A model generated the notes under the pieces. It was not told the origin of the DNA, did not search any database, and worked only from the letters and a program-made list of their open reading frames with translations. A DNA stretch of 64,000 nucleotides, taken from the NCBI GenBank assembly GCA_951812345.1, contig OX638295.1:1708965-1772964 (forward strand), given 5' to 3'. This DNA comes from Rhodothermales bacterium. GTDB taxonomy: Bacteria > Bacteroidota > Rhodothermia > Rhodothermales > VXPQ01. Each line of letters opens with the position of its first letter. Position 1 is the stretch's first letter. A program made the position numbers and the translations under genes. Below are positions 6,907 through 34,290 of this stretch, in pieces.

Positions 6907-7631
6907 CGCTCCCGGATGACTTCCTGAAGAGCATCCACGGTCCAGGCTTCGTTCACCGAGAAGTCGCCGATACTCGTGCGCCGGAGTCGGACGATATGCG
7001 CACCTACGCCCAGGGCCTGCCCAAATTCATGGGCAAGACTGCGAATGTATGTACCCTTGGAACACTCGACCACAAAAGAAACATCCGTGTTCTTTCTCTC
7101 GAGTATTTCAAAAGACCGAATGGTAACGATGCGCTTCGAGGGAGCTACCTCCTCACCCCGGCGCATCTTGCGATAGAGGCGCTCGCCTCCTCTCTTGACA
7201 GCGGACCAGGCGGGCGTTATCTGTTCAATGACGCCAACGAAGCGGTCACGTGCCCGCAGAAGGTCTTCATCTCTGATTCCCGAAGGATCAAGGCGTTCGG
7301 TCACCTTTCCATCGGCGTCGTAGGTATCGGTGACTTCACCAAGCCGCAACGTTGCTTCGTATGTCTTGGGCAGATTCATAAACTGCTCCATGAGCCGGGT
7401 CGCCCGTCCCATCAGTATAATCAGCAACCCGGTAGCCAGTGGATCGAGCGTGCCGGCATGCCCCATTTTGCGCACGTCAAGGGTGGGCCTCAGCCTGCGA
7501 ATCACATCGAACGATGACCATCCTCCAGGCTTGTCCACAGGCAGTACGGTCGTGTCAAATGTCTCCGGCAATGTCGGAGCCGGATAATAGACTTCTCTAA
7601 TATCTACATCCCGAATAAAGGGCTGTGTCAT
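6897..7631 (-). CDS. truB: tRNA pseudouridine(55) synthase TruB
   Basis: A 244-residue TruB with VDKPGGWSSFDVI near the N-terminus and the catalytic motif HAGTLDPLATGLL, whose Asp attacks uridine. It converts U55 in the T-loop of elongator tRNAs to pseudouridine and also acts as a tRNA chaperone. The C-terminal PUA part is short. The start overlaps the rbfA stop by 4 bases and the end overlaps ribF by 10 bases, indicating a tightly coupled operon. Confidence 0.95.
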   Translation of the reverse strand: MTQPFIRDVDIREVYYPAPTLPETFDTTVLPVDKPGGWSSFDVIRRLRPTLDVRKMGHAGTLDPLATGLLIILMGRATRLMEQFMNLPKTYEATLRLGEVTDTYDADGKVTERLDPSGIRDEDLLRARDRFVGVIEQITPAWSAVKRGGERLYRKMRRGEEVAPSKRIVTIRSFEILERKNTDVSFVVECSKGTYIRSLAHEFGQALGVGAHIVRLRRTSIGDFSVNEAWTVDALQEVIRERCA

Positions 7632-28658: not shown

Positions 28659-29693
28659 ATGGAACCGACAGTCATAGCAGGATCAGGAATTGCTTTGCAA
28701 GTAATCGAAAAAGGACTTCAAACCTTCCAGGGAAAAAACGTAAAGGATATAGACTTTAACGAGAGTTATACATATAGGCCACAATATCCAGCACAAGAAC
28801 CGCTAACGGCGTTTCAACTCCCGACAAGATTTATAGAGAGAAATTTTCGAAAGATTTCAATACATAAGTGTGATTGCGAAGAACTAAACAATTGTTTGAA
28901 ATATTTGGTGTCCTTTAGGACATTCTGTTTATCAATATTGCACAAAAAGATAGAATTGGCAGGATTTGATTCGGAAAGCGTTAATGATAGATACTATAAG
29001 GGATCTGATATAAATAGGACTTTGGATGTTTTAGAAAAAGTTCAAGAAAAATATATACAATTGTTTCCTGAGGATCCAGAAAAGGATATGACTTTAGAGC
29101 AGACATATGATAAAATAAGAAAAAAAGCTGAAGCAAGAGTATTGTCGAGACAAACTCATCTGATCATGACTCGTGTGTATGGACAAGCCAGAGAGTTGTA
29201 TGAATATATACAAAAAACATATGAATGTCATAGTAATCAATTAAACTATATGTTCGGAGATATTAATATTGAAAATGTCAAGAATTTATCAGGTTATGGA
29301 GAAATTTTAGTTTATATGAAATATATGCTTTTACCCAGAATAAACGATTTATATCAACAATATAGCACCTGTGTTAAAAATGTTCAAATAGGCCACCAAA
29401 TTCGATGGGATAGCTATAAAGCATCACTTAAGACAGGTAGTGGACCGGATTATTGGGAGCCAATAGACACTGCTTATGATGCACTGTTGAATGATATAAT
29501 TAAGAGCTTTTGTGTCATAGATAATTTGGGAAGTTTGGCTAATTTGTTAATAGAATTGGAAAGTGTATTCACAAGTTTGCTAAAGGAAACTAAAATCGAA
29601 GTTTCTAAATGTAAAAAAAGAATTTTAGTGGACTTATTTACTTTCCCGGAAAATTTATCACTCAAATGGACTAATTTTAAGTTAGAGATGTAA
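28659..29693 (+). CDS. AT-rich hypothetical protein (344 residues), accessory island
   Basis: A single long frame (starting MEPTVIAGSGIALQVIEKGL, ending NLSLKWTNFKLEM) in DNA that is by eye about one-third G+C, against well over half in the flanking core. Codon use is also different (many aaa, ata, tta), which points to horizontal acquisition. The protein looks soluble and largely helical, with Cys in HKCDCEELNNC and a possible coiled segment around residues 120-180. I recognise no family. It is transcribed towards the CBASS operon and ends 260 bases before the E2-like gene, on the opposite strand. A defence role is possible from context only. Confidence 0.7.
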   Translation: MEPTVIAGSGIALQVIEKGLQTFQGKNVKDIDFNESYTYRPQYPAQEPLTAFQLPTRFIERNFRKISIHKCDCEELNNCLKYLVSFRTFCLSILHKKIELAGFDSESVNDRYYKGSDINRTLDVLEKVQEKYIQLFPEDPEKDMTLEQTYDKIRKKAEARVLSRQTHLIMTRVYGQARELYEYIQKTYECHSNQLNYMFGDINIENVKNLSGYGEILVYMKYMLLPRINDLYQQYSTCVKNVQIGHQIRWDSYKASLKTGSGPDYWEPIDTAYDALLNDIIKSFCVIDNLGSLANLLIELESVFTSLLKETKIEVSKCKKRILVDLFTFPENLSLKWTNFKLEM

Positions 29694-29952: not shown

Positions 29953-30633
29953 TCATAAAGCACCATAGTTGGCTGGTTTGCGCCCTGACATTCGAATCAG
30001 CATTTGATAGTCAGTGCGTGCATGCGCCGGATCAATGGTGCGTCTTAATTCTAAGAATAGCTCTCTATGGCATTTTTGTAGACGCATTCCGCTCCCACAT
30101 GGACATTTCTCATTGTATTCTGGATATTCTGGTCGAGCCAATAGAGACATGAAGCGCTTGATTGTCTCAATGTCTGGCGATCCAAGCAATGCCAAAAATT
30201 CCTCGTAGGACTCTACGATGCCTCGTTCATCATGTGATCGTCCCCATCCGGGTGGCCAGTGACCGTGAGCCTGAAAGTAAGCTTGACCCACAAAGAATGG
30301 CTTTACCAACCACTCAAGGAAATCCGTTAGATCGGATCCGTATGGCCAGTGCTTCCTGTATTCAGAACGTACACATAAACAAGCTATTCCATGCTCACGG
30401 GAAGGCACATGCCTTTCAATGTCTCCCCAAGATATTTCATGCCTGTTACAGATTAGATATGGGATGCCTTCTGGATAATTGTTAGGGATAACCAGTTCAA
30501 CGCTATACCCTGTTTGGGGATCAAGCCACATGGTTCCAGTAACCTTGGCCGGACTGATAGATGCATCCAAAGTGAGATCTGGGAATGCACTGGCAAGACG
30601 CTCTTGCTCCTTGTTGATCAAGTCTTGCTTCAT
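29953..30633 (-). CDS. CBASS E2-like conjugating protein with C-terminal SEC-C zinc motif
   Basis: A 226-residue protein. Residues ~20-115 follow an E2 ubiquitin-conjugating fold: YPEGIP stands where E2s have YPFKPP, and His75 followed by Cys85 (HVPSREHGIACL) matches the HPN...ICL active-site spacing. Residues 177-189 are a SEC-C zinc motif (CPCGSGMRLQKCH). The start codon overlaps the stop of the CD-NTase gene by 4 bases. In E2-only (short type II) CBASS, such proteins are known to join or prime the nucleotidyltransferase. No E1 or JAB-peptidase gene accompanies it here. The SEC-C tail may hold a partner or zinc; that is inference. Confidence 0.85.
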   Translation of the reverse strand: MKQDLINKEQERLASAFPDLTLDASISPAKVTGTMWLDPQTGYSVELVIPNNYPEGIPYLICNRHEISWGDIERHVPSREHGIACLCVRSEYRKHWPYGSDLTDFLEWLVKPFFVGQAYFQAHGHWPPGWGRSHDERGIVESYEEFLALLGSPDIETIKRFMSLLARPEYPEYNEKCPCGSGMRLQKCHRELFLELRRTIDPAHARTDYQMLIRMSGRKPANYGAL

Positions 30634-31645: not shown

Positions 31646-32761
31646 TTAACGTACTCCGTTCCCCGGCATACGCTTGAAGGTTTCAATGAACAACTTGCCC
31701 CGTTCATCAATGTCAGGTGGTTGACACCATCTGTAGATTTCCTGCCCATCGCGATTCCCAAGCTGCTCCATCAAATTGAGAGCTTTTTTCGAGGCAGAAT
31801 CAAGTTGCATAAGGTCAGCTTGGGCCGATGATGGTTTGTGTTCCTGGCAACGCACAATGTCCACATGTTTGCCAAGACGTTTCAGTTGCTCCACGAGAAG
31901 AGTTACAGCATAGCGGGCGGACTTTCCTTGAGAACTCATGGCGAGTTCCAAGACAGATATTCCACCACGCCAGTCTATAATTCCACGATCAAATTTTATT
32001 ACAGGCTGGTTGCCAACAGGTGGGGCACATGTTCCAACTGATATGATCACTATTGGCCGTTTTTCGCACGACATGGCCAGTCCTTCTATCAGTCCTAAAA
32101 GCACGGGATCGTTTGCCCACAGCCCCCCGTCAGTATATGCTTGTTCAGGTATGTCATCTTCTGTAATAGATGCCAGCGGAAGGTAGACTGGCGCCGCACT
32201 ACTTGCCAAACAAGCATCTGCCAATAAGAGACCATTGTCACGATCCTTTCCCTCAAGATGTGGCGTTTTGAATACCCTCGGCTGGTGCTGCAAAAATGCA
32301 GTGGCTGAAACACAGAGGCCAATATTGCGCTTTTCGTATAGCTTGCCGAATGTTTGATCGCCAAAAATCTCATTCAGTGCGGATTGTAATGCATGATTGG
32401 AGTTTCCGGCTCGACACAAGTGTCTGCGCACCCAACACCAGAATTGGATTTTATGTTGAAGTTTACGTGTTCTCTCGTATATCGGTACTGGATCCGTAAA
32501 TATGTCAGGCCCTGTTTTCTTGTACAGTTCTTTAATTCTTTCAAGAGAAATACCGGCAGCTATTGCTGTTGCCAGAATTGCACCGGTGCTGGTTCCCACG
32601 ACAAGATCGAAACACTTGCCGATGTCGATATCTTCTGTTTTGGCCTCCTTGGCGAAGCGTTTGGCAAGGGCGTGCAATACTGACACGGTGTATAATCCGC
32701 GCATGCCGCCGCCCTCAATGGTTAAAACCCGCAGGGGTTCTTCAGTATGTGTTGACATCAA
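31646..32761 (-). CDS. capV: CapV-like patatin phospholipase, CBASS effector
   Basis: A 371-residue patatin-family lipase. The oxyanion GGGMRG (residues 17-22), the nucleophile Ser58 in GTSTG and the Asp of DGG (Asp211) form the complete catalytic dyad. CapV enzymes are activated by the cyclic dinucleotide of a neighbouring DncV-type synthase and degrade the inner membrane, killing the infected cell. No signal peptide or membrane segment is visible, as expected for a cytoplasmic effector. Gene order CapV, CD-NTase, E2 on one strand is a classic CBASS layout. An ATG one codon in is an equally good start. Confidence 0.92.
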   Translation of the reverse strand: MMSTHTEEPLRVLTIEGGGMRGLYTVSVLHALAKRFAKEAKTEDIDIGKCFDLVVGTSTGAILATAIAAGISLERIKELYKKTGPDIFTDPVPIYERTRKLQHKIQFWCWVRRHLCRAGNSNHALQSALNEIFGDQTFGKLYEKRNIGLCVSATAFLQHQPRVFKTPHLEGKDRDNGLLLADACLASSAAPVYLPLASITEDDIPEQAYTDGGLWANDPVLLGLIEGLAMSCEKRPIVIISVGTCAPPVGNQPVIKFDRGIIDWRGGISVLELAMSSQGKSARYAVTLLVEQLKRLGKHVDIVRCQEHKPSSAQADLMQLDSASKKALNLMEQLGNRDGQEIYRWCQPPDIDERGKLFIETFKRMPGNGVR

Positions 32762-32856
32762 TTACTTCCTCCTTTATTGCTCTTGTGCTTTCGGTCCGGC
32801 GCAAAGCAAGGAACCCTTCCAGCAACAAGCCAGCACAAGGGTCCCTTCGCCAGTTC

Positions 32857-33063
32857 TCAGCTCGTATGACAAGCGTTGGAGCAGTAGTAGCAGCCATTCA
32901 CCTGACTATAGTAGTCTTTGGCCTTCTTAACGGCAGAAGCACAGGACGAATAGTCGCTGAGATAGATGCGGTTTTCAGGCTTTGGCAGCCAAGCACAGCT
33001 CTTCTTGTGGACTTCATGCTCCCCGTTGGTCTGCTGATTCTTGTTTACGTAATAATATGCCAT
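32857..33063 (-). CDS. Small Cys/His-rich protein upstream of the CBASS operon (68 residues)
   Basis: A short protein beginning MAYYYVNKNQQTNGEHEVH with Cys23, Cys41, Cys58, Cys61 and Cys65 and several His (16, 19, 66). The last part, GCYYCSNACH, looks like half of a zinc site. The start has a strong ribosome-binding site (GGAGG, 6 bases before ATG). It is transcribed in the same direction as capV and ends 95 bases before it, so it may be the first gene of the CBASS transcript. I recall similar small proteins with an HK.C...YL.D....A...A...Y....GC..C pattern as hypothetical proteins in many bacteria, but no function is known to me. Confidence 0.75.
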   Translation of the reverse strand: MAYYYVNKNQQTNGEHEVHKKSCAWLPKPENRIYLSDYSSCASAVKKAKDYYSQVNGCYYCSNACHTS

Positions 33064-33349
33064 TTTTAACCTCCATGGCTACTGGATTTATTTTACGAAC
33101 TGACAGCTGGCTTGGTTCCCTCAAAAACGGATTTAGGACCTTTGAAAATATTTTGGCAATAACGGAAATAAAAAGCTCCCCCATATCCCATGGAGGTTGT
33201 ATCGGACAACCCCTTCCTTCTATATTTTAATGCCGTTACCATTACTCGCAGGCAGGATTGGTCGGTCTCCTGCTGAATAAAATAGCGGATTCAGGGCGCA
33301 GAGTCTTGACCCGCCTAATCGAAAAGAGGCCGGAACACGGACGGTCGGC
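33064..33349 (-). promoter_or_regulatory. Presumed promoter region of the CBASS operon with a small palindrome
   Basis: This AT-rich stretch precedes the small Cys-rich gene and contains no gene. It holds the inverted repeat GGTTGT-5 bases-ACAACC (33195-33211) and several A/T-rich blocks that could serve as -10 regions. A regulator binding the palindrome is conjecture. The part beyond 33230 returns to higher G+C and is probably island debris. Confidence 0.3.
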
Positions 33350-33625
33350 ATCTGATCGATTGAGATATCCGCACCTTGACCGTTTCTCCGTAGGCAATAC
33401 TTGCGGGTGACGGGATCAGCTCCCTACCCGGTGTGAACCACGCCTTGCGCACTAACCGCATAGCTTCCTCGTCGCACCCGCCGCCAAGCGGTTGCTGACA
33501 ACCATATCTTCCACCCCACCTTGCCCATTGACCACAAACGATACCACTACTTTCCCCTCAATACCCTGTTCACCGGCCTCTCGGGGGTATCGAAACAACT
33601 GGCGGATAGTTTTTCTCCTCCGATC
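33350..33625 (-). pseudogene. Remnant of a TonB-family energy-transducer C-terminal domain
   Basis: Translated on the minus strand, one frame reads LFRYPREAGEQGIEGKVVVS and on through VVNGQGGVEDMVVSN. After a frame change it reads GGGCDEEAMRLVRKAWFTPG followed by GETVKVRISQSI. This is the TonB C-terminal pattern (YP..A...GI.G.V.V.F.V...G.V....V....GGG.D..A...V....F.PG). No start codon and no membrane anchor remain, so it is a broken fragment. It marks old rearrangement between the CBASS operon and the IS3 remnant. Confidence 0.75.
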
Positions 33626-33834
33626 AAGAGAGACGGTTCGGGTTGACTGAACAGATTTCCGCGGAACCTAAGGCGTAGTATTGCCCCCTGTTCCAACCCA
33701 GTCACCCCGAACCCATCTCAAGACGGACGCACAGAATCCACAGTCTTTCGTCCGAGGCGAAAGCCCCCCGCCACCATACACAGCGACAGCCCGCTGGCAA
33801 ACCTCGCCAGGTCCCAATGATCCGTTTTCCCCCT
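33626..33834. other. No gene seen; decayed sequence
   Basis: This stretch may contain the further upstream part of the broken TonB-type gene, since minus-strand frames show LEQGAILRLRFRG-like protein pieces interrupted by stops. Nothing intact can be supported. Confidence 0.4.
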
Positions 33835-33900
33835 TTTGAGTAATTTCTATACCTTTTTGGAGTAATTTCTACTCCTTTTCGGAGTAGTTTTTACTCAAAA
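33835..33900. repeat. AT-rich palindromic triple repeat (gagtaatttctactc)
   Basis: Three imperfect 21-22-base units follow one another: ttgagtaatttctatacc, tggagtaatttctactcc and cggagtagtttttactc. The middle one is a perfect hairpin (GGAGTA/TACTCC). The outer ends are inverted (CCTTTTGAGTAA against TTACTCAAAAAGG). It looks like an operator array or a small recombination site. It stands just upstream of the BrnT-like fragment. Confidence 0.6.
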
Positions 33901-33933
33901 AGGTGTATTAGGACACACTTAATCCCTTGGATT

Positions 33934-33984
33934 ATGCAATTCGAACTCGACCCCGAAGAAAGGGAGCGCAATCTCCTACGGTGA
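33934..33984 (+). pseudogene. Truncated BrnT-like toxin start
   Basis: The ATG at 33934 encodes MQFELDPEERERNLLR and then a stop. This resembles the conserved N-terminus of BrnT ribonuclease toxins (M.FEWDP.K...N..KHG). The rest of the gene is gone, apparently replaced by the IS3 remnant that starts about 20 bases downstream. Sixteen residues give only modest support. Confidence 0.4.
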
Positions 33985-34002
33985 CCCAAGATTTTCAACA
34001 CC

Positions 34003-34290
34003 GACACCGGGGAGCGTAGTTTGCCTCCGAGGCGTTCACGACTGTGCTGAAGGCACACGGCGTGCGCATCTCTATAGCCGGCAAGGGCTACTGGCTCGAC
34101 AACGTGTACGTGGGCACCTGTGGCGCGGCCTCAACCAGGAAGATGTCTACCGGGCGCCTACAAGACGGTTGCCAAGGCTAGAAAGGGCATTGCCGACTAC
34201 CTGCACTACTTCAACGAAGAATGCCCCCGCCAGGGGCTTGACAACCGCACCCCCCACTGCGTATCCTGCGAACGAATATTTCCTACTTGG
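34003..34290 (+). pseudogene. IS3-family transposase (orfB) remnant
   Basis: The frame-shifted translation reads FASEAFTTVLKAHGVRISIA, then GKGYWLDNVYV, then (shifted) LWRGLNQEDVYR, then (shifted) GIADYLHYFNEECPRQGL and DNRTP. This is the C-terminal part of an IS3-type DDE transposase (DNVF.ERLWR.LK.EDVY ... YN..RPHQ.L...TP). The 5' portion and the ends of the element are missing. It abuts the start of the methyltransferase/nuclease gene. Confidence 0.85.

What the first reader, a model, noticed from the sequence alone, without database searches (positions are those of the whole stretch)
32857..33063. 68-residue Cys/His-rich protein as a possible fifth component of the CBASS locus
The gene lies directly upstream of capV in the same orientation with a strong ribosome-binding site, so it is probably first in the operon. 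It has five Cys and a GC..C...CH tail, which suggests zinc binding or redox sensing. Such a protein is not a standard CBASS gene; it could be a regulator, an inhibitor, or an unrelated island passenger.
Basis: partly seen in the sequence, partly recalled or inferred. Interest (0 to 1): 0.6.

Follow-up and report, generated by a model that had tools for sequence, protein, structure and literature searches.

The report
Mobile mini-protein of bacterial defence islands
The small cysteine-rich gene beside this bacterial anti-phage (CBASS) operon is real, but it belongs to a widespread, strongly conserved, mobile protein family of unknown function that sits beside many kinds of defence genes, phage genes or nothing in particular, so it is a neighbour of CBASS rather than a fifth part of it.

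Summary
The 68-aa ORF (32857-33063, minus strand; "T") is real: good ribosome-binding site, relatives in 56 bacterial genome loci plus phages and plasmids, dN/dS 0.03-0.18. It matches phrog_4298 (unknown function) and no Pfam, NCBIfam or PADLOC family. Its five Cys plus His19 and His66 are invariant. AlphaFold gives a confident compact fold (pLDDT 95) with no PDB match.

The CBASS-component reading is not supported. Window CapV, CD-NTase and E2 have no homologue in the 56 T loci (up to 6 kb each side). In 394 phylum genomes T occurs in 25 and the CD-NTase in 5; only the window has them adjacent. Two other T-CBASS proximities exist, arranged differently: an E. coli ICE with the TW11681-type operon (T convergent, 223 bp past cap3, unannotated) and a gammaproteobacterial MAG. 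The published four-gene TW11681 operon protects MG1655, which was not among the T-positive E. coli genomes.

T favours defence neighbourhoods: type I HsdS within 10 kb in 6 of 53 loci (0.3-0.6 expected); SIR2-HerA, Mrr, Old-like and toxin-antitoxin genes elsewhere. It also stands alone between housekeeping genes and in prophages. Best reading: a mobile, probably zinc-stabilised, self-contained accessory gene; molecular role unresolved.

The parts
32857..33063 (-). Gene T: 68-aa protein, homologue of phrog_4298; invariant H19, C23, C41, C58, C61, C65, H66
   Evidence: ORF; phrog_4298 E 7.6e-24; 56 genome loci; conservation; AF2 pLDDT 95.4; dN/dS
33070..33074 (-). Shine-Dalgarno box GGAGG of gene T, 6 nt before the ATG
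   Evidence: sequence
32808..32847 (-). Imperfect 11-bp hairpin in the T-capV gap; no U-tract, not an obvious terminator
   Evidence: fold, z -0.24 against shuffles; not listed by the terminator scan
31646..32761 (-). capV, CBASS cGAMP-activated patatin phospholipase (probable start ATG at 32758, SD 32768-32773)
   Evidence: PF01734 E 1.7e-28; NF041079 CBASS_lipase 223 bits over cut-off 200; PDLC00758
30630..31619 (-). DncV-like CD-NTase
   Evidence: PF21654 E 1.6e-19; PDLC00783 E 6.5e-110
29953..30633 (-). E2-only conjugation protein with C-terminal SEC-C motif; the CBASS is an E2-only type II system
   Evidence: PDLC00865 E 1.5e-36; PF02810

Best explanation
T is a member of a horizontally mobile family of about 70-residue single-domain proteins (phrog_4298) that travels as a self-contained gene in variable, defence-rich islands, integrative elements, plasmids and temperate phages. 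In the window it came to lie 98 nt upstream of capV in an E2-only type II CBASS island. It is not a structural or signalling part of CBASS. Shown: the gene is real and under purifying selection, it is sporadic and moves across phyla, its context is variable, it is enriched near type I restriction, and CBASS linkage is rare. Inferred: it has its own promoter in most places; the protein is a metal-stabilised mini-domain (H19, C23, C58, C61 in an Ada-like HxxxC...CxxC arrangement, with C41, C65 and H66 as a second cluster or disulphide). Also inferred, as a guess: it acts alone by binding nucleic acid or a host or phage protein, giving its carrier (island, prophage, plasmid) an accessory benefit such as defence modulation.
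For: 56 T loci hold no homologue of window CapV, CD-NTase or E2. T in 25/394 phylum genomes and the CD-NTase in 5/394, adjacent only in the window. Of the 49 T-bearing genomes only one (G094) has a DncV-like or SMODS cyclase within 10 kb of T. T was found in none of the Agrobacterium or Klebsiella plasmids that dominate the 187 plasmid records with related CD-NTases. HsdS within 10 kb of T in 6/53 loci against 0.32-0.64 expected, p about 1e-6 to 5e-5. Other HMM-confirmed neighbours: SIR2-HerA (L146), Mrr/PDC-S02 (L148), PDC-S06 (L152), RmrA-type HTH-M78 (L155), Old/GajA-like (L051), HsdS (L099), type II REase (L026), MTase (L060). T in temperate Streptococcus, Staphylococcus and Erysipelothrix phages and a Vibrio inovirus. 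Mobility: best match to window T is 75% in an alphaproteobacterial MAG but only 62% in a congener; absent from 4 of 5 congeners. No same-strand ORF of at least 85 aa ends within 100 bp upstream of T in about 50 of 56 loci (my reading).
Against: In the window T does lie close to and in line with capV, and its GC (47.8%) matches CBASS (45.5-48%), not the host (58.8%), so the two may have arrived together. T-CBASS proximity recurs: 18/18 E. coli genomes with this cap2-cap3 locus carry T 223 bp away, though they are one near-identical ICE lineage, and a MAG has a type II short CBASS between two T genes. No metal site was measured, and Foldseek found no Ada-like structure.
Confidence: 0.8

Rival explanations
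1. T is a CBASS-associated regulator or inhibitor encoded first in the operon, comparable in position to CapW, CapH-CapP or CapK-CapS, sensing metal or redox state and setting capV expression or activity.
For: Same strand, 98 nt upstream of capV, no called terminator between them; GC like the CBASS genes; three independent T-CBASS proximities (window).
Against: Arrangement differs in each case: upstream same strand; downstream convergent past cap3; downstream same strand beyond a 407-aa gene. No HTH or STAS domain. The four related CBASS loci of the phylum sample have no adjacent T: three of those genomes lack T and in G275 it is on another contig. The four-gene TW11681 operon protects MG1655 (PMC10097602), which was not among the 19 T-positive E. 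coli genomes.
Confidence: 0.1
2. T is a stand-alone anti-phage or prophage-exclusion protein in its own right, which is why it accumulates in defence islands and temperate phages.
For: Enrichment near HsdS and other defence genes; in Streptococcus Javan231, Staphylococcus 187, Erysipelothrix SE-1 and the Vibrio inovirus T runs against the neighbouring early or structural genes, as lysogenic-conversion genes often do.
Against: Many T genes sit alone between housekeeping genes; in the phage contigs L065-L078 T runs with the neighbouring genes; no PADLOC model covers it; no functional test.
Confidence: 0.25
3. T is a counter-defence protein (for example anti-restriction) of phages, ICEs and plasmids, left behind in defence islands where such elements integrate.
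For: Carried by phages, plasmids and an ICE; neighbours are often restriction systems; small single-domain proteins are common among anti-restriction factors (general knowledge).
Against: Chromosomal T genes are intact and under strong purifying selection; some lie immediately beside an intact type I system they would have to inhibit (L033, L099).
Confidence: 0.2

Closest known systems
phrog_4298 (PHROGs v4, unknown function)
   Same: Full-length match: residues 1-67 on profile positions 1-69 of 70, E 7.6e-24
   Different: No difference established; the family has no described function, and the bacterial, defence-island side is added here
Ada_Zn_binding-like mini-domain (PF02805, small HxxxC...CxxC members L182-L192)
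   Same: HxxxC then N-R-x-x-F/L strand, helix, CxxC; strand-strand-strand-helix order in the AF2 model; hhalign score 20.3 exceeds all 150 column-permuted controls
   Different: hhalign probability only 16%; no PF02805 hit; no Ada structure among Foldseek hits; longer helix segment; three extra invariant ligands C41, C65, H66; no catalytic domain
CBASS transcription controllers CapW, CapH-CapP, CapK-CapS
   Same: Encoded upstream of immune operons (PMC13373217, PMC11153139)
   Different: Those are HTH, WYL, protease, kinase or STAS-wHTH proteins; T has none of these domains and is not consistently upstream of CBASS
E. coli TW11681 CBASS locus (capV-dncV-cap2-cap3)
   Same: A T gene lies 223 bp beyond cap3 in the ICE copies examined; TW11681 is among the T-positive genomes
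   Different: T is convergent, not in the operon, and absent from the protective four-gene construct (PMC10097602); window CBASS is E2-only

Membership tests
CBASS component | Gene recurrently encoded in CBASS operons of independent origin | tested here: not met
   0/56 loci by BLAST with window CBASS proteins; cyclase within 10 kb in 1 of 49 T genomes; 1/394 phylum genomes, the window itself
CBASS component | Fixed place and orientation in the operon | tested here: not met
   Three different arrangements (window; L193; L195)
CBASS component | Needed for protection | not testable with these tools
   Literature only: four-gene TW11681 operon transferred to MG1655 protects (PMC10097602); window system untested
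phrog_4298 | Full-length profile match | tested here: met
   E 7.6e-24, 1-67 to 1-69/70
Ada_Zn_binding (PF02805) | Match over the curated cut-off | tested here: not met
   No Pfam hit up to E 1
Ada_Zn_binding (PF02805) | Four-ligand zinc site C/HxxxC...CxxC | tested here: inconclusive
   H19, C23, C58, C61 invariant; profile similarity weak; coordinates and metal not available
Ada_Zn_binding (PF02805) | Ada-like fold | tested here: inconclusive
   AF2 order of elements agrees but Foldseek returned no significant match
Defence-island gene | Enriched beside known defence genes | tested here: met
   HsdS within 10 kb 6/53 against 0.32-0.64 expected; SIR2-HerA, Mrr, Old-like and others
CapW / CapH-CapP / CapK-CapS type controller | DNA-binding domain (HTH, wHTH, WYL) | tested here: not met
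   No such domain found; AF2 model has one 8-residue helix and no HTH

The most novel reading that the evidence does not exclude
phrog_4298 proteins are an uncharacterised, cross-phylum, autonomous anti-phage or defence-modulating metal mini-protein, overlooked because it is small and often unannotated, including beside the much-studied TW11681-type CBASS locus.
Probability: 0.25. Interest if true: 0.65.

Novelty: new member of a known kind. Interest (0 to 1): 0.38.

Why it matters
It removes a false 'fifth CBASS gene' lead and points to a cross-phylum, strongly conserved small protein family that is often unannotated, has no assigned role, and clusters near restriction, CBASS, SIR2-HerA and toxin-antitoxin genes. 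Because a T gene lies beside the E. coli TW11681-type CBASS locus, whose four-gene construct is already in laboratory use, the question whether T modulates defence can be tested directly with existing strains.

Tried and rejected
Fifth CBASS component: rejected on neighbourhood counts. Intrinsic terminator between T and capV: none called; the hairpin is not special. Solved-structure relatives by sequence: only chance matches to ferredoxin-type PsaC, E at least 4. Fold relatives: none with E below 0.1 in PDB or BFVD; the top PDB hit, an MbtH-like protein (E 0.74), was dismissed. Ada-domain homology: weak, kept only as a lead. Fixed partner gene: none; the Bacteroidota kinase/response-regulator neighbour is lineage-local. 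Literature on phrog_4298: none found.

Full report
Observation. The ORF at 32857-33063 (minus strand), here called T, is present as described: 68 aa, five Cys, a GC..C...CH tail and a GGAGG box 6 nt before the ATG. It lies 98 nt upstream of capV in the same orientation. The operon downstream is an E2-only type II CBASS: CapV phospholipase, DncV-like CD-NTase and an E2 with a SEC-C motif. T itself matches only phrog_4298, unknown function, E 7.6e-24, and nothing in Pfam, NCBIfam or PADLOC.

Is it a gene? Yes. Relatives were fetched from 56 genome loci, and tblastn found it in 21 plasmid and 13 phage records and a scan in 21 viral contigs. Pairs of T genes give dN/dS 0.03-0.18. Mean column identity over phyla is 56-58%, and V18, H19, C23, C41, A44, G57, C58, C61, C65 and H66 are invariant. 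Two of the 56 loci (L036, L040) are disrupted by stops.

Is it part of CBASS? BLAST with window CapV, CD-NTase and E2 found no homologue in any of the 56 loci, which reach up to 6 kb either side of T. In 49 T-bearing genomes, DncV-like cyclases occur in 9 and SMODS cyclases in a similar set. Only one genome, G094, has a cyclase within 10 kb of T (T positions). In 394 genomes of the window's phylum T occurs in 25 and the window CD-NTase (E up to 1e-20) in 5. Only two genomes have both, the window genome and G275, and in G275 they lie on different contigs. My estimate of the chance expectation for cyclase-T proximity in the 49 genomes is about 0.06, so one case is not compelling.

Two proximities outside the window are still notable. 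In contig C34 of G094 a CD-NTase, E2, membrane effector and 407-aa gene are followed 337 bp later by a divergent T, with a second T 10 kb on the other side. In E. coli, a DNA search with the plasmid T found 19 of 5,426 genomes: one plasmid without CBASS nearby, and 18 chromosomes. A search with cap2-cap3 of the ICE locus found the same 18 genomes. In the two I opened, T is convergent with cap3 at 223 bp in an integrative element and is not annotated. The sequences are nearly identical, so this is one evolutionary event. TW11681 is one of the 18. The four-gene operon of that strain, moved to MG1655, protects against T4, T6 and lambda (PMC10097602). MG1655 was not among the T-positive genomes listed. 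I infer, from the gene order and the description as a four-gene operon, that T was not in that construct.

What does T sit next to? Contexts are very mixed. Type I specificity subunits (PF01420) lie within 10 kb of T in 6 of 53 T loci, against 0.32-0.64 expected from their number and genome sizes. HMM scans confirm SIR2-HerA, Mrr/PDC-S02, PDC-S06, an HTH-M78 RmrA-type protein beside DUF4411, Old/GajA-like ATPase, HsdS, a type II restriction enzyme and a methyltransferase beside individual T genes. Panacea antitoxin-type genes lie beside T in Patescibacteria. Other T genes stand alone next to lepA, carB, sucC, hslV or clpB. I identified several of these neighbours by reading the sequence; LepA, carbamoyl-phosphate synthase, ATP-grasp and AAA_2 matches agree. 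In Bacteroidota, many T genes follow a kinase/response-regulator pair, a lineage-local arrangement.

Phages. In Streptococcus Javan231, Staphylococcus 187, Erysipelothrix SE-1 and Vibrio inovirus vB_VipaK, T runs against most neighbouring genes. In a group of viral contigs it runs with its neighbours, upstream of large late-type genes. Carriage as an accessory gene fits both.

Mobility. Window T is closer to an alphaproteobacterial copy (75%) than to a congener's (62%). Four of five congeners lack T. T and CBASS share GC of 45-48% in a 59% GC neighbourhood, so they may have arrived together.

Structure. AlphaFold2 on 57 sequences gives pLDDT 95.4: three strands, a helix, a short strand and a Cys-rich tail. 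Foldseek gives no significant match in PDB or BFVD. The motif HxxxC...N-R...helix...CxxC resembles the small Ada-like zinc domain. hhalign against small PF02805 members gives only 16% probability, but its score (20.3) exceeds all 150 column-permuted controls (maximum 17.5). I treat zinc binding as likely and Ada kinship as a lead.

Conclusion. T is a mobile, autonomous small protein family that favours defence-rich islands but is not specific to CBASS. What it does is unknown; my first guess is a metal-stabilised binding protein that modulates or adds to defence of its carrier. Limits: loci were found with peptide patterns of the window protein and lean towards close relatives; ORF calls were mechanical; the enrichment test has no matched control for island genes; no transcript or biochemical data exist here.

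Noticed in passing
L195 and L196 at 7001-7219 (E. coli NZ_CP025859.1, NZ_CP145679.1): An intact 72-aa T gene 223 bp from cap3 is not annotated in RefSeq; in both records dncV of the same CBASS is interrupted by an IS3-family element.
   Followed up: partly
G000:C1:1078998-1089663 (own genome, outside the window): Three further CD-NTase-like genes cluster within about 11 kb elsewhere in the same genome.
   Followed up: no
window 28659-29693 (+): A 344-aa ORF convergent with the E2 gene, only 32% GC, with no Pfam, NCBIfam or PADLOC match.
   Followed up: no
L032, L037, L043, L045, L144 and others: In Bacteroidota a TPR-type histidine kinase and a 221-aa response regulator precede T, followed by variable genes (DUF1508/YegP-like, HSDR_N-like, TerB-like); looks like a conserved cargo site.
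   Followed up: partly
window 33100-34290: About 1.2 kb upstream of T has no intact gene; by eye it holds fragments resembling TonB and an IS3-type transposase.
   Followed up: no
L193 7410-12457: Type II short-like CBASS (CD-NTase, E2, membrane protein, 407-aa unknown) in a large defence island of a gammaproteobacterial MAG.
   Followed up: partly
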